Virus record (IMG/VR): IMGVR_UViG_3300035180_004104
Span: 1 to 44,234 of that record
DNA length: 44,234 nt
Source: a virus
Strand: one strand, 5' to 3'
This document shows, in pieces, positions 1-44,234 of this stretch (position 1 is the first letter of the stretch; each line of letters opens with the position of its first letter). Under the pieces are notes generated by a model that worked only from the letters and a program-made list of their open reading frames with translations, made no database searches and was not told where the DNA came from. Position numbers and translations under genes: made by a program.

Positions 1-180
1 ATGAAAACCGTCAGCAAGACTGAATTTGAAGCCTTTGTCGCCGCGCGATCGACTCGTATCGAGACAGAGCGCGATGTCGAGTACAGCTATGAGACTTATT
101 TCGACAAAGCGACCGACGAAGAGATTGCTTTCATCAGCTATCATTCATCCGAACAAACCACCTATCACATTGCAAAATAA
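1..180 (+). CDS. Small acidic hypothetical protein (59 aa), first gene of an edge cassette
   Basis: An ATG at base 1 opens a 59-codon frame ending TAA; this stop overlaps the ATG of the next gene (TAATG), so the two are translationally coupled. The product is soluble and acidic (many Glu and Asp, few Lys and Arg) with aromatic residues in the middle (Tyr-Ser-Tyr-Glu-Thr-Tyr-Phe). I recognise no family. The codon use is less GC-rich than in the late genes. Position and partner (a small HTH protein directly downstream, at the prophage edge, convergent with the lysis genes) suggest a moron, possibly an anti-CRISPR-like or toxin-antitoxin-like gene. The sequence could begin further upstream, outside the window. 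Confidence 0.6.
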   Translation: MKTVSKTEFEAFVAARSTRIETERDVEYSYETYFDKATDEEIAFISYHSSEQTTYHIAK

Positions 181-617
181 TGAAAACAACCTTCTCCCTG
201 CTTTGCGATCGCTGCGGCCTCTCGCAACCGGCCGCAGCTGATTTCCTCAAGACGCGGCTTGATACAGTCAAATCCTGGTCATCCGGCCGCAACGAGGCCA
301 AGGTTAGCGTGCTCGACGAACTTCGCGACCTTTACGCGCGGATCGAGGAAGCCGCCGAGGCCGCGTCTGAGCAGATCGAGGCGCTGCTGGATGCGCGGAT
401 CGATGCGCCCGATGAAATCGAAATTGGCCTGGCCAGCGACGATCATGAGGCGCGTCAGCTTGGCCTGCCCTGCGTCGGCGCCCATGAGGCCCTGATCGGC
501 CTGGTGGTCGCCGGCTTCCCGGGCCAGCGCTTCAAGATCGTGCCGCGCGGGTCAACCGCCGGCACGGCGGCGGCGATCGCGGCGGCGGAAGACGCCGGGA
601 CGGAAGACGGCGACTGA
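180..617 (+). CDS. Small helix-turn-helix protein, possible Aca-like autoregulator
   Basis: 145 aa. Residues 1-60 resemble the XRE/YdiL-type HTH: a Leu-Ser-Gln-Pro-Ala-Ala-Ala-Asp-Phe-Leu helix, a turn, then a recognition helix Asp-Thr-Val-Lys-Ser-Trp-Ser-Ser-Gly-Arg. An amphipathic Ala/Glu-rich helix follows (residues 50-75), then an unrecognised C-terminal region ending in an Ala-rich tail. Anti-CRISPR-associated (Aca) regulators have this size and order and sit directly downstream of small acr genes; that comparison is architectural only. Alternative: an ordinary phage or toxin-antitoxin repressor. It is coupled to the gene before it and convergent with the last late gene, with 47 bp between stops. 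Confidence 0.7.
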   Translation: MKTTFSLLCDRCGLSQPAAADFLKTRLDTVKSWSSGRNEAKVSVLDELRDLYARIEEAAEAASEQIEALLDARIDAPDEIEIGLASDDHEARQLGLPCVGAHEALIGLVVAGFPGQRFKIVPRGSTAGTAAAIAAAEDAGTEDGD

Positions 618-664: not shown

Positions 665-1006
665 TCACAGCAGCGTCAGACTGACGCCGATCGCGGCGCC
701 GAGCAGCAAGGCCGCGATCACCGCCAGCGCCGCCCAGCCCAGCAGGATCTTCGATCCCCGCTGGCCGGGCGAGCCGGCCGGGTCGAAGCGCGTCCATTCG
801 CTGGTGACGTTCTTCAGCGCCTCGAAGGTGACATGCAGCCCCCGCGCCACCTCGACCCGGCGCCAGTGCTCATCCATCGCCGGATCATGCCAGCCCCAGC
901 TGTTTGCCTGGCGCTGCTGGTCCTGGGTATTGGAGATCGGCAGCAGCAGCCAGCGCAGGCCACCGATGGCCTGGGCCGCCACGGCGGCCAGGATCGAGCG
1001 TTTCAT
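665..1006 (-). CDS. Small membrane protein, last gene of the late operon
   Basis: 113 aa with a weakly hydrophobic N-terminus, a polar middle with Trp-rich motifs (Ser-Trp-Gly-Trp-His, Glu-His-Trp-Arg-Arg) and a clear C-terminal membrane span (about residues 87-112, Leu/Ala/Ile-rich) followed by almost nothing, so it is probably tail-anchored. The ATG has a G-rich ribosome site 5 bases upstream. It follows the spanins and a tiny lipoprotein, so it belongs to the lysis end of the late transcript. I do not recognise a family; an antiholin, superinfection-exclusion or lysis accessory role is possible but unproved. Confidence 0.65.
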   Translation of the reverse strand: MKRSILAAVAAQAIGGLRWLLLPISNTQDQQRQANSWGWHDPAMDEHWRRVEVARGLHVTFEALKNVTSEWTRFDPAGSPGQRGSKILLGWAALAVIAALLLGAAIGVSLTLL

Positions 1007-26461: not shown

Positions 26462-27992
26462 TCTCTTCCTCGACCAAGGCGAGGTCGGTATAGAAGTAGA
26501 CGCCGACCTTTTCCTTCTCGTAATGCAGGTCGGAGAGACGCCGCCCGAAGGCCGTCCGGCTGGTCGGCTGCAGGCCGTTGATGCCGGCCCATTTGGTGAA
26601 GATGTCGAACAGCCGATTGGCCTGCACCTTCTGGCCCTTCTCGCGGCGCGTCACCACGCGCATGAATTCGCCGACCGTGTCGCTCTCCGATCGGTACTCA
26701 TCGGTGGCGTGCAGCACGCTCTCCGGCGCCACCAGGCCGCGTTCGCGCCAGATCAGGTATCCATCCAGCATCCAGTTCAGGATGCCGGCAGCTTCAAGCT
26801 TCAGCCGCTTGGGCAGCATCTTGTCGCGCTTGTTCTTCTGGATGAATTCCAGGAACGGCACCAGCAGGATGCGCCGCCAGATGCCCTCATCCTGGCCCCG
26901 CACCCGCGGCTTCTTGTTGAAGGCCAGCACCAGCTTGAAGCAGGGCATGAACTCGAAGAACGGCTGGTGCAGGTTGCGGGCGGTCATTTCCTCGCCGCCG
27001 GTGACCTGCTTGGTCATGCTCTCCGACAACGCCCGTGCGCCTTCCGGCTCGCTGGCGGTGATCAGCCGGGCGCCCGGCACCCGCGCCAGATCCGGTGTCG
27101 CATCGCCGCCGCGCCGCTTCTCATCGCTGAGGAAGGTCTCGATCGGCAGCACGATGGCATAGTCACCCATGATGTATTTGATGACATCCAACAGCGTCGA
27201 TTTGCCATTGGCCCCGGCGCCATGGGCCATCACCAGCTGCTGCTCGCTGATATCGCCGGTCAGGACATAGCCGAACCAGGTCTGCAGGAACACCTGCGTG
27301 TCCTTATCCGGCACGATCTGATCGAGAAACGTCAGCCATTGCGGGCAGCGCGCCGCCGGGTCATAGACGACATTGCAGATCCGGGTGATCAGGTCGTCAT
27401 GGCGATGCGGTCGCAGCTTGATCTCGCCATCGACGAGCTCCGGCAAGCCGTCTTCGCCGGTCGTCAGCTCGGTCGGCAGCTCAAGCGTGCCATTGGCCAC
27501 GTTCAACAGGAACGGCCTGTCATCCAATTCCCGCGCCAGGCGGCGGCGATAGGGCATGGCTGTCCGCAACATGGCATCCACCTTGGCGGCATTGCCGCTC
27601 GATCCTCGCCATTTGCCATGGTCCTCGATCCGCTTCAGCCACTCGCCGGGCGAAAATCCCTCCGGCGGATCGGCGCGCAGGCGCTTGAACTCCGCATCCA
27701 GGGCCTTGACCTCGCCGGCCATGGCATCGGCCACCAGATGCGCCCGTTTCATCGCCTCCGGCTCGCCACCCTGCGCCGACCAGCGCCGCCCGTCCCAGAT
27801 CAGCCATTCGGTGCCGTCGACATAGATCATGTCCTGGCCATGACGCGCGATCAGTCGGCGCGCATTGCCGATATCGTTGCGCGGTTCCAGGGCCAGCTTC
27901 AATTCGTCGACCGGCGCCTCGGCTTCCGCCACGGCGGCGGCGATCGCCGCGATCCCGGTGCCGGGTCCCTGTTGTTCACCCTGATCGCTCAC
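26379..27992 (-). CDS. SF3 helicase / P4-type primase-helicase (D5-like)
   Basis: 537 aa. GTG start overlapping the primase stop (GTGA). An N-terminal helical region (about 1-200) is followed by a superfamily 3 ATPase: Walker A Gly-Ala-Gly-Ala-Asn-Gly-Lys-Ser-Thr (258-266), an acidic Walker B region at about 305-320 and the C motif near Lys-Leu-Val-Leu-Ala-Phe-Asn-Lys-Lys-Pro (about 362-371). A winged-helix end follows. No primase active site of its own is obvious, so it works with the primase encoded next to it. It loads at the origin and unwinds phage DNA. The C-terminus is Gly/Ser/Asp-rich. Confidence 0.88.
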   Translation of the reverse strand: MSDQGEQQGPGTGIAAIAAAVAEAEAPVDELKLALEPRNDIGNARRLIARHGQDMIYVDGTEWLIWDGRRWSAQGGEPEAMKRAHLVADAMAGEVKALDAEFKRLRADPPEGFSPGEWLKRIEDHGKWRGSSGNAAKVDAMLRTAMPYRRRLARELDDRPFLLNVANGTLELPTELTTGEDGLPELVDGEIKLRPHRHDDLITRICNVVYDPAARCPQWLTFLDQIVPDKDTQVFLQTWFGYVLTGDISEQQLVMAHGAGANGKSTLLDVIKYIMGDYAIVLPIETFLSDEKRRGGDATPDLARVPGARLITASEPEGARALSESMTKQVTGGEEMTARNLHQPFFEFMPCFKLVLAFNKKPRVRGQDEGIWRRILLVPFLEFIQKNKRDKMLPKRLKLEAAGILNWMLDGYLIWRERGLVAPESVLHATDEYRSESDTVGEFMRVVTRREKGQKVQANRLFDIFTKWAGINGLQPTSRTAFGRRLSDLHYEKEKVGVYFYTDLALVEEEIGQLESSGSGSGRDPRPDDGGMPDQSG

Positions 27993-29113
27993 GCCACCCT
28001 CATGTCACGCTGAATCATATCGTTGAAATCCTTGCCCGGTTCCGCCCAGGCGACGCGCACCTCCAACCCCATCCGCTGAAACCGCAGCGTGGCGCAGTTG
28101 ATCAGCGCCCGCGTGATATGCGGGTCGCTGTCGCCATCACCCAGGATGATCAACCGCTTGACCGTGGCCGGCGGCAGGAAGCCGGGCCGGTCCAGATCCG
28201 GCCAGGGCGCCGGGATGCGGACACCGGGCCGGGTCGGATGCTCGACTTCGCTCTTGCGCCGCCGCCGCCATTCCTCGCCCCGTCCTGCGATATTGCCAAG
28301 GCTGAGGGCGGCCCAGACCGGCACCGTGCTGCCATGCTGGCGCAGGGCCTGCAGGACCGACAGCGAGGTTTCAATCCCCTCGCCGATCGCCAGCACGTCA
28401 TCGACCGGCGCAAGGCGCGTGGCGCCACCCCAACAGACACCCAGCATCTTCTTCGCCTGCTTGCCCAGCGGCGCCTTCGCGTCCCCATTGCGCGCGAGGA
28501 AGGTGCGGTGAATGCCGGTGATGCGACCCTCGTCGTTCTGCACCGCCGCCACCATGGCCGGGTAATGCGGCGCGCCAGGCGCCTTGTCGCTGGGCAGGTC
28601 GGGATGGAATCGCAAGGAGGGCGGTAAGCCGCCGATCGCAACCGGGTCAATGCCACGGCGGATCAGATAACGCTCGACCAGCGATCCCGGCGCCGGCCGC
28701 GAGACGCGCCAGATATCGCGTGACCAATCGATCGTGGCGGCGCGATAACGTTCTTCTTCCTGCTTGGAATAGGTCGCCGCCATCGGCGTCGCGAAGCGCT
28801 GGCGTGGCGCGATCCTGGCCGCTTCGTCTTCCGGCATCAGGCCGGCACGCGCCGCCAGCTCGGCAATCGCCGTCTTGTCGTCCAGGCGATGGATATCGCG
28901 ATAGAAGCCGATCACATCGCCTTTGGCGCCGCAGCCATAGCAGAGATAGACGCCCTTCCCCGGATTGACATAGAAGCTGGGCGTGCGCTCGCCATGGAAC
29001 GGACACAGCCCGACCAGCTCCCGGCCGGCCTTTTTGAGCACGACGCTGCCGGCGACCACTTCCATCAGGCTGATCTTGGCCTTAATGGCGTCGATGGAAT
29101 AGCGCGCCGTCAT
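27989..29113 (-). CDS. DNA primase, CHC2 zinc finger plus Toprim
   Basis: 374 aa. Zinc finger Cys37-x2-His40 and Cys58-x2-Cys61 at the N-terminus, then a Toprim domain with Glu245 in Ile-Gly-Glu-Gly-Ile-Glu-Thr-Ser and the Asp motif Ile-Leu-Gly-Asp-Gly-Asp-Ser-Asp near 330. It synthesises primers for phage replication. It starts with ATGA overlap after the methyltransferase gene and is followed by the SF3 helicase, the typical pair. No helicase domain is present, so the functions are split between two genes. Confidence 0.9.
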   Translation of the reverse strand: MTARYSIDAIKAKISLMEVVAGSVVLKKAGRELVGLCPFHGERTPSFYVNPGKGVYLCYGCGAKGDVIGFYRDIHRLDDKTAIAELAARAGLMPEDEAARIAPRQRFATPMAATYSKQEEERYRAATIDWSRDIWRVSRPAPGSLVERYLIRRGIDPVAIGGLPPSLRFHPDLPSDKAPGAPHYPAMVAAVQNDEGRITGIHRTFLARNGDAKAPLGKQAKKMLGVCWGGATRLAPVDDVLAIGEGIETSLSVLQALRQHGSTVPVWAALSLGNIAGRGEEWRRRRKSEVEHPTRPGVRIPAPWPDLDRPGFLPPATVKRLIILGDGDSDPHITRALINCATLRFQRMGLEVRVAWAEPGKDFNDMIQRDMRVA

Positions 29114-30363
29114 GCGACCTCAAGCGAATTAAATCCGGTCAGCAGCGACCCCTGCCGCAACATCGGCTCGATGCGGCGCCGGGCGATCGCGATCGATTGC
29201 TCGTTCAACTCGATCAGCACCGCATCGCGCTGCAGCTCGGCACAGACCAGGCCGGTTGTGCCGGCACCGCCGAAGGGGTCCAGTATAATCGCCGGCACCG
29301 GCGACTGCCGAGGACAAGGGCAACTTGGTTCCCATCCAACTGTGGCATGGGACACCGAGCCACGCTGTGATCCCGACCAGCGTGAACTCTCATCCAACTG
29401 CTCTTTAGTTCTCAAAGCAGCATCGGCCGATACATCTGCATGGGGGTGAAACGACTTCTCGGTAATCCGTCGCCATTGCGCCCCGCAATTCGGACAACAG
29501 CCTTTTTCCGATGTACCGGCTAAAATGCAGGGTCGCGCCAGATCGGGCGGAAAGGTCGCAAAATGCGCTTCCTTGAACGGCTTGGTGGCGATGCTCCAGA
29601 CGTTCTTGAGGTTTGCCGATCCTCGATCGGTCGCGTCAAGACGTGTGTGATTGATATGACCCTCATGGCGGGGCGTCAGGCCTCGCACCGCCTTCATTGG
29701 CCGATCGGCTCGATCGCCACCGTTGGCGCGCTGGCTGCCGACTTGATTGTCTATATCCTGTTGCCAACGAGCCTTGGAAGTCGGAGCGGCATCGGTCCGC
29801 ACAGCGACCGCGTCATAGAAATAGCGCTCGCTTTTGGAGAACAGAAACACCTTCTCATGCGCCGTCGCCGGCCGGTCGGTGATGCTCTCCGGCATCGGAT
29901 TGGGCTTGTGCCAGATGATTTCGCTCCTGACCCACCAACCAGCATCCTGCATGGCGATGGCGAAGCGGTTCGGCACCATGCAGAGATCCTTGGGCTTCAT
30001 CACGCCCTGGATGGTCGAAAACGGCTTGTCCCGAAACGTCCTGTCATCCGTGCCAAGGCGCTTCACCTCATCCGCGCGGCGGCCATTGGGCGATGTTGCA
30101 TAGCAATCGCCGTAATTGACCCAGCAGGTGCCATCAGGCCGCAGCACGCGCCGCACTTCGGCGAAGACCTCATTGACCATGACATCCAGATGTGCCGCCA
30201 GGGTTGGCTCGCAACCGATTTCCTTGGACTTCTCCGCGTGCGTATCGGGCAGATAAGAGCGCAGCCCCCAATAGGGCGGCGACGTGACCACGCAATGCAC
30301 GCTGCTATCCGGCAGGCCACGCAGCCGCTCGATGACATCGCCGTGCAGGATGCGGATCGTCAT
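29110..30363 (-). CDS. Orphan beta-class DNA methyltransferase (N4-cytosine or N6-adenine)
   Basis: 417 aa. Catalytic motif IV Thr-Ser-Pro-Pro-Tyr-Trp (27-32) precedes the AdoMet motif I Asp-Pro-Phe-Gly-Gly-Ala-Gly-Thr-Thr (362-370), the beta-class order. A Ser at the second position is common in m4C enzymes, but m6A enzymes also use it. A likely zinc ribbon (Cys-Cys-Pro-Asn-Cys ... Cys-Pro-Cys-Pro) precedes motif I. No restriction gene is nearby. It lies in the replication operon and may protect phage DNA or alter host methylation. Its ATGA-type overlaps show coupling with both neighbours. Confidence 0.88.
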   Translation of the reverse strand: MTIRILHGDVIERLRGLPDSSVHCVVTSPPYWGLRSYLPDTHAEKSKEIGCEPTLAAHLDVMVNEVFAEVRRVLRPDGTCWVNYGDCYATSPNGRRADEVKRLGTDDRTFRDKPFSTIQGVMKPKDLCMVPNRFAIAMQDAGWWVRSEIIWHKPNPMPESITDRPATAHEKVFLFSKSERYFYDAVAVRTDAAPTSKARWQQDIDNQVGSQRANGGDRADRPMKAVRGLTPRHEGHINHTRLDATDRGSANLKNVWSIATKPFKEAHFATFPPDLARPCILAGTSEKGCCPNCGAQWRRITEKSFHPHADVSADAALRTKEQLDESSRWSGSQRGSVSHATVGWEPSCPCPRQSPVPAIILDPFGGAGTTGLVCAELQRDAVLIELNEQSIAIARRRIEPMLRQGSLLTGFNSLEVA

Positions 30364-42865: not shown

Positions 42866-43110
42866 TGAGCGCACCTAGGCGCAAAGCCGACGTCTTGCCG
42901 GCATCACTGCCACCGCGCGGCTTGTCGCGTATTGAGTCAGCAGCATATGTTGGCGTTTCCCCAACGCTCTTTGATGAGATGGTCGGCGATGGTCGTATGC
43001 CGGGTTCTAAAAGAGTTAACAGCCGGGTAATCTGGGACCGGGTTGCGCTTGACGTTGCGTTCGTGGCTCTGCCGGGATCAGACGACGTCAATGAATGGGA
43101 TACCTGGTGA
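42865..43110 (+). CDS. Excisionase or AlpA-like HTH protein
   Basis: 81 aa from the ATG at 42865. Winged-helix core: Gly-Leu-Ser-Arg-Ile-Glu-Ser-Ala-Ala-Tyr-Val-Gly-Val-Ser-Pro-Thr-Leu-Phe, then Gly-Arg-Met-Pro, Val-Asn-Ser-Arg-Val-Ile-Trp-Asp. Immediately precedes the integrase with a GTGA overlap, which fits an excisionase. It would turn the recombination direction towards excision after induction. Confidence 0.75.
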   Translation: MSAPRRKADVLPASLPPRGLSRIESAAYVGVSPTLFDEMVGDGRMPGSKRVNSRVIWDRVALDVAFVALPGSDDVNEWDTW

Positions 43111-44234
43111 CCCGGATTGTCCTGCCCTATCTTTCCATCGAGACGGACCGCCATGGCAATGACCGCTACTATGTCCGCCGGGGCGGCAAGCGAAAGCGCA
43201 TTCGCGAGACGCCGGGAACGCCCGCGTTCCTGGCGGCCTATCAGGCGCTCCTGAGTACCGATAGTGATCCGACGCCGCAGAAGGCCATCGCGGCAACCAA
43301 GCGCCTACCAGGCAGCCTTGGATGGCTTTGTCAGGAGTATTTCAAGGCCGCAGAGTTCACGACCCTTGGCCCGACCACGCGGCATGCCAGGCGGTTGATC
43401 CTGGACCGTGTCTGCGAGACGGCCGGCGAAAAGCGGTATAGGATGCTTGAGTCCAAGCACATCAGATCGGCCCGCGACAAGATGGCCGACCGGCCGGAGG
43501 CGGCCAATTCCCAGATCAAGGCGCTGCGGCAGCTGTTCAAGTGGGCGATCAACGCGCAATTGACGGCAGCCAATCCAGCCGAGAAGGTTCCTTACCTCAA
43601 AAGCAAGAACCCCGATGGATTCCATACCTGGACGCTAGATGAGGTTGCCGCCTTCGAGGCGCGGCACCCTGTCGGCACCAAGGCCAGGCTGGCATTGACG
43701 CTGCTGCTCTATACCGGCGTGCGGCGATCAGACGTGATCCATCTTGGCCCACAGATGATCAAGGACGGCTGGCTGAGCTTCACCGAGGCCAAGGGCCGCG
43801 CCCGGAAGGTCAAACACCGTCAGCTGCCCGTCCTGGCGCCGCTAAAGGCCATCATCGACGCAACGCCTGTGGGTCATTTGAATTTTCTGGTCACCGAACA
43901 CGGCAAACCCTATTCCCACGGCGGCTTCGGAAATTGGTTTGGCCGACAGTGTCGGTTGGCTGGACTGAAGGATTGTTCGGCGCACGGCCTGCGCAAGGCG
44001 GGCGCGACCATCGCCGCCGACAATGGCGCAACCGAGTTCCAGCTGATGGCAATCTATGGCTGGGAATCCGCCAAGCAAGCGGCGGTCTATACCCGCCGCG
44101 CAAACCGTAGAAAGCTAGCTGGCGAGGGCATGCATTTCATCTCGATTGAGGAACAAGCCGGGAATACCACTGTCTCACCACAGATCGAAAAAACTGAAAG
44201 TGAGACAAAATCTGACGAAAACATCAACGAATAG
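43107..44234 (+). CDS. int: Tyrosine integrase
   Basis: 375 aa from a GTG at 43107 overlapping the excisionase stop (GTGA); the ATG at 43095 would add four residues but has no ribosome site. Core-binding domain (about 70-160), then the catalytic domain with Arg206 (Thr-Gly-Val-Arg), Lys229 (Glu-Ala-Lys-Gly), His293 and Arg296 (His-Gly-Leu-Arg), Trp319 and nucleophile Tyr328. All six canonical positions are present, so it should be active. The tail is acidic and Ser/Thr/Lys-rich. The last base of the stop is the last base of the window, so attP/attR must lie just outside. Confidence 0.95.
   Translation: MTRIVLPYLSIETDRHGNDRYYVRRGGKRKRIRETPGTPAFLAAYQALLSTDSDPTPQKAIAATKRLPGSLGWLCQEYFKAAEFTTLGPTTRHARRLILDRVCETAGEKRYRMLESKHIRSARDKMADRPEAANSQIKALRQLFKWAINAQLTAANPAEKVPYLKSKNPDGFHTWTLDEVAAFEARHPVGTKARLALTLLLYTGVRRSDVIHLGPQMIKDGWLSFTEAKGRARKVKHRQLPVLAPLKAIIDATPVGHLNFLVTEHGKPYSHGGFGNWFGRQCRLAGLKDCSAHGLRKAGATIAADNGATEFQLMAIYGWESAKQAAVYTRRANRRKLAGEGMHFISIEEQAGNTTVSPQIEKTESETKSDENINE

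What the first reader, a model, noticed from the sequence alone, without database searches (positions are those of the whole stretch)
1..617. Edge cassette: small acidic protein plus HTH protein, acr/aca-like layout
A 59-aa acidic gene overlaps the start of a 145-aa HTH gene at the prophage edge, on the strand opposite to the late genes. Anti-CRISPR loci show this order (small unknown protein, then Aca regulator), and the HTH protein's size and domain order resemble Aca2-type regulators. This is layout-based; I see no known Acr sequence.
Basis: partly seen in the sequence, partly recalled or inferred. Interest (0 to 1): 0.65.

Follow-up and report, generated by a model that had tools for sequence, protein, structure and literature searches.

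The report
Aca2-like switch with small anti-defence gene
At the end of this bacterial virus genome a tiny acidic gene is followed by its probable off-switch, a DNA-binding protein whose relatives in other phages sit behind more than 20 unrelated tiny genes and appear to shut each one down twice, at the DNA and at the RNA, as the anti-CRISPR regulator Aca2 does.

Summary
The layout is real: a 59-aa acidic ORF (1-180) whose stop codon overlaps the start of a 145-aa HTH gene (180-617), opposite in strand to the late genes. The record is cut exactly at the 59-aa ATG, so this copy's promoter is missing. Relatives show what it is. The HTH family (30 loci, alphaproteobacterial phages and prophages) follows at least 21 unrelated small ORF families. 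In 27 loci a single operator, (A/G)TACAC-N5-GTGTA(T/C), lies just downstream of a -35-like TTGAC. About 20-40 nt further on come two covarying RNA hairpins: an 8-bp stem with an AU(U)GG-type loop, then a short one whose loop usually holds the Shine-Dalgarno sequence (95% of cells paired; 0/500 shuffles). The modelled fold matches Aca2 over HTH and C-terminal domain. The only fully paired 8-bp ATGG/ATTGG-loop hairpin in the Aca2 phage ZF40 lies directly upstream of acrIF8-aca2. The best reading is a divergent Aca2-like autorepressor controlling small accessory, probably anti-defence, genes. That the 59-aa protein blocks CRISPR is untested: no known Acr occurs in any locus, and Cas1 was found in only 2 of 7 genomes carrying the family. 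One distant relative of the 59-aa protein lies upstream of a different HTH gene in a Mu-like prophage.

The parts
1..180 (+). 59-aa acidic protein, putative anti-defence (candidate Acr-like) cargo gene, first gene of the operon; record begins at its ATG
   Evidence: ORF; pI 4.8 and GC 46%; relative WP_094462609 in a Mu-like prophage in front of a different HTH gene
178..182 (+). TAATG stop/start overlap, expected to couple translation of the HTH gene to that of the cargo
   Evidence: sequence; 15 of 30 operons overlap and 8 more have a gap of 1-10 nt
180..617 (+). 145-aa Aca2-like HTH regulator: HTH residues 1-55 (recognition helix around RLDTVKSW, invariant), long helix 42-72, beta-alpha-alpha-beta C-terminal domain 80-122, C-terminal helix 127-143
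   Evidence: alignment A1/A2; AlphaFold2 model pLDDT 89.8; Aca2 fold match; profile comparison
665..1006 (-). first gene of the convergent late/lysis strand; marks the downstream limit of the cassette
   Evidence: ORF; no PHROG match
43095..44234 (+). tyrosine-type integrase at the opposite edge of the record; cassette and integrase occupy the two ends of the provirus
   Evidence: PHROG_1 integrase, E = 5e-39

Best explanation
The cassette is a phage accessory operon: a small cargo gene (59 aa) followed by its own Aca2-like repressor (145 aa). On entry the operon is transcribed from a strong sigma-70-type promoter. The HTH protein then accumulates and shuts it down in two ways: (1) as a dimer it binds a palindrome (A/G)TACAC-N5-GTGTA(T/C) that lies between the -35 and -10 regions and blocks RNA polymerase; (2) it binds the leader RNA, which folds into an 8-bp hairpin with an AU(U)GG-type loop next to a small hairpin exposing the Shine-Dalgarno sequence, and so blocks ribosomes. 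The cargo is most likely an anti-defence protein needed early and harmful or costly later. Shown here: the two genes, conservation of the regulator, its Aca2 fold, swapping of unrelated cargo, the operator and the two covarying hairpins in relatives. Inferred: that the window's own copy has the same promoter and leader (cut off by the record's edge), that the protein binds both sites, and that the 59-aa protein counters a host defence.
For: Regulator: AF2 model (pLDDT 89.8) matches 2ox6 (Z 13.3) and Aca2 7ezy/7vjo/7vjq/7b5j (Z 10.8-11.3 over 110-116 residues, both domains). Aca2 7ezy is the best full-domain sequence-profile hit in the PDB (E 0.0024; E 0.049 with the closer alignment). hhalign against Aca2: probability 95.8, E 8e-9, 108 columns. 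14 of 25 members hit PF08965, best E 5e-4. Cargo swapping: 29 operons, at least 21 unrelated small-protein families, none in Pfam and none with a credible NCBIfam match. Operator: present once, never twice, in 24 of 30 loci fetched by protein alone; 0.1 expected in all 275 kb; outer bases co-vary A..T 18, G..C 7. RNA: 12 pairs, 95.4% of cells paired vs 76.6% shuffled, covariation 0.486 vs 0.152 (0/500), slid versions at most 0.087. Pattern searches without protein: all hits with a nearly complete hairpin stem carry the HTH gene downstream; 18 hits with 0-4 of 8 pairs carry none. L007 and L008 keep the hairpins without a clear operator. ZF40: the only fully paired 8-bp ATGG/ATTGG hairpin in 48 kb lies directly upstream of acrIF8-aca2. 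Papers: Aca1/Aca2 bind inverted repeats over -35/-10 (PMC8434428, PMC9410906); an Aca2-RNA complex exists (PMC11239489).
Against: The window's own operator and leader are not in the record. No binding was measured. No known Acr occurs in any family locus, and 5 of 7 genomes carrying the family showed no Cas1 (several are draft MAGs), so the cargo may counter other defences or do something else. The 59-aa protein has one weak relative, and its single-sequence model is poor (pLDDT 56). Sequence similarity to Aca2 is about 13-19%, and the window protein itself does not hit Pfam Aca2_YdiL. L012 and L031 show no clear leader.
Confidence: 0.78

Rival explanations
1. The pair is a true anti-CRISPR operon: the 59-aa protein inhibits a CRISPR-Cas system of the host and the HTH protein is its Aca.
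For: acr-aca gene order, translational overlap, Aca2 fold, ZF40-like leader. Small acidic, GC-poor gene. Its only relative lies in a small-gene run ending in another, 68-aa HTH gene between baseplate genes of a Mu-like prophage, so the same small protein occurs with two different regulators.
Against: No known Acr in the family's loci. Cas1 in only 2 of 7 genomes carrying the family. The relative has E = 0.02 only. Per PMC9410906 only 3% of Aca2-like genes in bacterial genomes sit with recognised acr genes.
Confidence: 0.33
2. Type II toxin-antitoxin module: the small first gene is a toxin and the HTH protein the antitoxin/autorepressor (HigBA- or MqsRA-like order).
For: Toxin-first order and autoregulation are shared. 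MqsA, HigA2 and NatRT structures appear among fold hits, mostly over the HTH only.
Against: At least 21 unrelated partners, none matching a toxin family in Pfam, and none with a credible match in NCBIfam. Full-length fold matches are Aca2/YdiL/SO3848, not antitoxins. PADLOC gives no hit for either window protein.
Confidence: 0.07
3. The leader hairpin is a second DNA operator half-site or a transcription pausing/termination element rather than a protein-binding RNA.
For: It is GC-rich and lies downstream of the promoter; no RNA was assayed.
Against: Pairs include many G-U and A-C oppositions, which suit RNA rather than a symmetric DNA site. The loop is conserved and not palindromic. A second hairpin whose loop usually holds the Shine-Dalgarno sequence covaries too. 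L007 and L008 keep the hairpins without the operator. The loop equals that of ZF40.
Confidence: 0.12

Closest known systems
Aca2 of Pectobacterium phage ZF40 (acrIF8-aca2; PDB 7b5j, 7vjq, 8w35)
   Same: HTH plus C-terminal dimerisation-type domain with matching fold; follows a small gene; palindrome between -35 and -10; leader with an 8-bp hairpin, AUGG loop and nearby Shine-Dalgarno sequence.
   Different: Only 14-19% sequence identity, with an extra C-terminal helix; different operator sequence (ZF40 GTTCGCGATTGCGAAC, here ATACAC-N5-GTGTAT); different cargo; alphaproteobacterial hosts; second hairpin usually presents the Shine-Dalgarno sequence in its loop rather than in its stem.
YdiL (1s4k) and SO3848 (2ox6), Aca2_YdiL-like regulators
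   Same: Same fold over nearly the whole protein; SO3848 is the best structural match (Z 13.3).
   Different: The Aca2 paper (PMC8434428) describes structural homologues outside acr loci; the present family sits in phages behind small genes.
Aca1, Aca10 and other single-domain Aca proteins
   Same: HTH fold (Z 6.8-7.8 over residues 1-59) and gene order.
   Different: Lack the C-terminal domain.

Membership tests
Aca (anti-CRISPR-associated regulators, functional class) | HTH protein encoded directly downstream of small phage genes in one operon | tested here: met
   Window and 29 other operons
Aca (anti-CRISPR-associated regulators, functional class) | Association with an experimentally known acr gene | tested here: inconclusive
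   30 cargo proteins scanned against Pfam, NCBIfam and PHROGs gave no Acr; no complete Acr sequence set was available
Aca (anti-CRISPR-associated regulators, functional class) | Inverted repeat overlapping the core promoter of the operon | tested here: met
   27 related loci; the window copy is truncated, so met for the family, not testable for this copy
Aca (anti-CRISPR-associated regulators, functional class) | Represses the operon's promoter | not testable with these tools
   needs a reporter or binding assay
Aca2/YdiL family (PF08965) | N-terminal HTH plus C-terminal Aca2-type domain fold | tested here: met
   Full-length structural matches Z 10-13, hhalign probability 95.8
Aca2/YdiL family (PF08965) | Passes the Pfam curated score (23.8 bits) | tested here: not met
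   The window protein does not hit PF08965; 14 of 25 members hit weakly, best E 5e-4. Hence filed as Aca2-like, not as Aca2
Aca2 RNA regulation | Conserved RNA stem-loop near the Shine-Dalgarno sequence of the first gene | tested here: met
   Two covarying hairpins in 27 distinct leaders; same loop in ZF40. Met for the family; the window copy is truncated. Protein binding not testable
Type II toxin-antitoxin | First gene belongs to a toxin family | tested here: not met
   No toxin family in Pfam and no credible match in NCBIfam for any cargo; no PADLOC hit for the window pair
Anti-CRISPR protein (59-aa) | Inhibits a CRISPR-Cas system | not testable with these tools
   needs a plasmid or phage challenge assay

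The most novel reading that the evidence does not exclude
A previously undescribed alphaproteobacterial branch of Aca2-like regulators keeps an ancestral RNA-loop recognition (AU(U)GG) while its DNA operator has completely changed, and it marks more than 20 new families of small anti-defence proteins, including the 59-aa one, that can be collected by searching for the operator-plus-hairpin signature alone.
Probability: 0.5. Interest if true: 0.75.

Novelty: new variant of a known kind. Interest (0 to 1): 0.62.

Why it matters
Anti-CRISPR and other anti-defence proteins are tiny and share no sequence, so they are found through their regulators. This family gives a new bait for Alphaproteobacteria (rhizobia, acetic acid bacteria, sphingomonads, rhodobacters), where few are known, and a protein-independent DNA/RNA signature that points straight at the first cargo gene. 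It also offers a test of how one HTH protein reads DNA and RNA: between ZF40 Aca2 and this family the RNA loop stayed the same while the DNA site changed.

Tried and rejected
59-aa relatives: none in viral contigs, 397 genomes of one family, 391 genomes of an order or phage records; a hit at E 0.006 in one of 397 genomes lies inside a 582-aa open frame and was not pursued. The 145-aa protein alone has no real Pfam match (T3SSipB at E 0.08 is noise). Operator not found inside the window; ATTGG-type hairpin sequence no commoner than chance there, as expected if it lies upstream of base 1. One search's second match (516-584 vs 27885-27951, 76%) was taken as GC-rich low complexity. MAFFT misplaced 4-nt against 5-nt loops (A5), so leaders were re-aligned with N padding (A6); the padding rests on hairpins picked by a stem score, a bias that the slid controls address only in part. 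The alignment query A1 found no more viral loci than the single protein. Five repeated pattern hits (L043, L045, L047, L048, L050) plus L053 and L054 are unrelated sequences without the HTH gene. No Rfam family in the leaders of four loci. No close relative of the phage at DNA level. The 2024 Nature paper on Aca2 and RNA is not held; its citation was seen but its details here are from memory.

Full report
OBSERVATION. The window is an entire virus record of 44,234 bases. Base 1 is the ATG of a 59-aa ORF (1-180); its stop TAA shares a base with the ATG of a 145-aa ORF (180-617). The small protein is acidic (pI 4.8) and its gene is GC-poor (about 46% against 62.9%). The following genes on the - strand include an endolysin-like protein, and an integrase lies at the other edge. 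The description is right, with one limit: the record stops at the ATG, so the promoter and leader of this copy cannot be read.

THE REGULATOR FAMILY. Twenty viral and ten genome loci encode relatives of the 145-aa protein, in phages and prophages whose named hosts include Acetobacteraceae, Roseomonas, Bradyrhizobium, Novosphingobium and Gemmobacter. A deposited member is WAX24372 of Bradyrhizobium phage ppBeUSDA76-1, which lies near the end of its record, behind a 98-aa gene that begins at the last base. The stretch RLDTVKSW, in the predicted recognition helix, is invariant in 25 sequences.

FOLD. AlphaFold2 on 15 family members gives pLDDT 89.8. Solved structures that match over nearly the full length are SO3848 (2ox6, Z 13.3), Aca2 (7ezy Z 11.3; 7vjo, 7vjq, 7b5j Z 10.8-11.0; 7vjp Z 10.6) and YdiL (1s4k, Z 10.0). 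Single-domain Aca1/Aca10 and antitoxins match mostly over the HTH only. By sequence profile Aca2 7ezy is the best full-domain hit (E 0.0024; E 0.049). hhalign of the family against four Aca2 sequences gives probability 95.8 and E 8e-9 over 108 columns. Pfam Aca2_YdiL is hit weakly by 14 of 25 members, but not by the window protein. So it is a distant relative of Aca2, not an Aca2 by Pfam's criterion.

CARGO. Between leader and regulator, 29 operons carry at least 21 unrelated small-protein families (20 linkage clusters, one of which merges two families through a fusion protein). None has a Pfam match; the two isolated NCBIfam matches (sec-independent translocase and a phosphatase, E 0.003-0.006) look spurious; one PHROG of unknown function (8020) covers three. 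Fifteen of 30 operons, the window's included, have cargo and regulator overlapping and eight more have a gap of 1-10 nt. [quoted passage not shown]

OPERATOR. Twenty-four of the 30 loci fetched by protein alone hold TACAC-N5-GTGTA, always once, with about 0.1 expected in all 275 kb. In 27 loci its first base lies 7-11 nt after the start of a TTGAC-like -35 wherever one was recognised, and the flanking bases change symmetrically (A..T in 18, G..C in 7), as a dimer-binding site should. Published Aca1 and Aca2 operators likewise overlap -35/-10 (PMC8434428, PMC9410906).

RNA LEADER. Downstream of the operator comes an 8-bp hairpin with loop ATTGG or ATGG (rarer ATAG, ACGG, ATGAG and the like), then a 3-5 bp hairpin whose loop usually holds the Shine-Dalgarno sequence, then the start codon. 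On 27 distinct leaders, 95.4% of cells pair (76.6% when shuffled), nine pairs show changes on both sides, and the covariation score is 0.486 against 0.152 shuffled (0 of 500) and at most 0.087 when slid. One position alternates between G-C, G-U and A-C, which suits RNA. No Rfam family matches these leaders in four loci tested. L007 and L008 keep the hairpins without a recognisable operator.

INDEPENDENT CHECK. Scanning viral contigs for operator plus hairpin sequence, without any protein, returned loci that carry the regulator downstream whenever the stem is complete or nearly so, including four not found by protein (L041, L051, L052, L056). A looser pattern gave 18 further stretches with only 0-4 of 8 stem pairs; none has the regulator.

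COMPARISON WITH ZF40. In the genome of phage ZF40 the only fully paired 8-bp hairpin with an ATGG or ATTGG loop, of 48 kb on both strands, is GGTTCGAG-ATGG-CTCGAATC, directly upstream of acrIF8-aca2 and close to its Shine-Dalgarno sequence. The operator there (GTTCGCGATTGCGAAC) is unrelated to the one here. [quoted passage not shown] its contents are recalled from memory, not read, so I could not check whether it already mentions this branch. A Pasteurella phage Aca2 locus (L061) shows, by eye, GAAACGGC-AAGGG-GTCGTTTC at the same place.

THE 59-AA PROTEIN. Its single convincing relative, WP_094462609 (69 aa, 40% identity over 57 aa, E 0.02, same start and a shared ISYHS motif), lies in a Mu-like prophage on a Pannonibacter plasmid, in a run of small genes between baseplate genes that ends with a different 68-aa HTH gene. 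The same small protein in two unrelated phages, each time upstream of an HTH gene but of a different one, is what an anti-defence cargo gene should look like. The E-value is weak, and the single-sequence model (helix plus three strands, pLDDT 56) does not help.

WHAT IS AND IS NOT SHOWN. Shown: gene layout, family, fold, cargo swapping, operator and covarying hairpins in relatives. Inferred: binding to DNA and RNA, the presence of the same leader at this copy, and the cargo's role. Cas1 was found in 2 of 7 genomes that carry the family, so the cargo as a class may act on several defences; I give the 59-aa protein about one chance in three of being an anti-CRISPR proper and somewhat better than even odds of being anti-defence of some kind.

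Noticed in passing
L058:3764-4795 (Pannonibacter phragmitetus plasmid p.BB_1, record 125610-126641): Small-gene run inside a Mu-like prophage between baseplate genes: 70 aa, 69 aa (relative of the 59-aa protein), 126 aa, then a 68-aa HTH gene; looks like a separate anti-defence cassette.
   Followed up: partly
L016, L018, L022, L027 (Bradyrhizobium-type members): The regulator is 247-279 aa, with an added C-terminal part that matches a solved protein of unknown function (2jtv, E 7e-4) and possibly Pfam DUF3860-like; all carry the same 95-98 aa cargo family.
   Followed up: no
L007:4240-4310 and L008:4200-4250: Both leader hairpins are kept but no operator is recognisable, suggesting RNA-only control.
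   Followed up: partly
L033:4710-5195 and L015:460-1107: Fusions of two cargo families into one ORF; the same families occur as separate neighbouring genes in L023, L025 and L011/L013.
   Followed up: partly
L019, L020, L029, L032 (sphingomonad-type members): HTH part conserved but the C-terminal domain is shorter and different; the leader hairpins are still present.
   Followed up: no
L061 (Pasteurella phage vB_PmuM_CFP3), upstream of 1208: Aca2 homologue whose leader can fold into GAAACGGC-AAGGG-GTCGTTTC; L062/L063 have a similar AAGGG loop, hinting at a general A-N-(N)-G-G loop for Aca2-type leaders.
   Followed up: partly
window 29110-30363 (-): 417-aa DNA methyltransferase ORF (PHROG_67, E 4e-63), another possible anti-restriction function in the same phage.
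   Followed up: no
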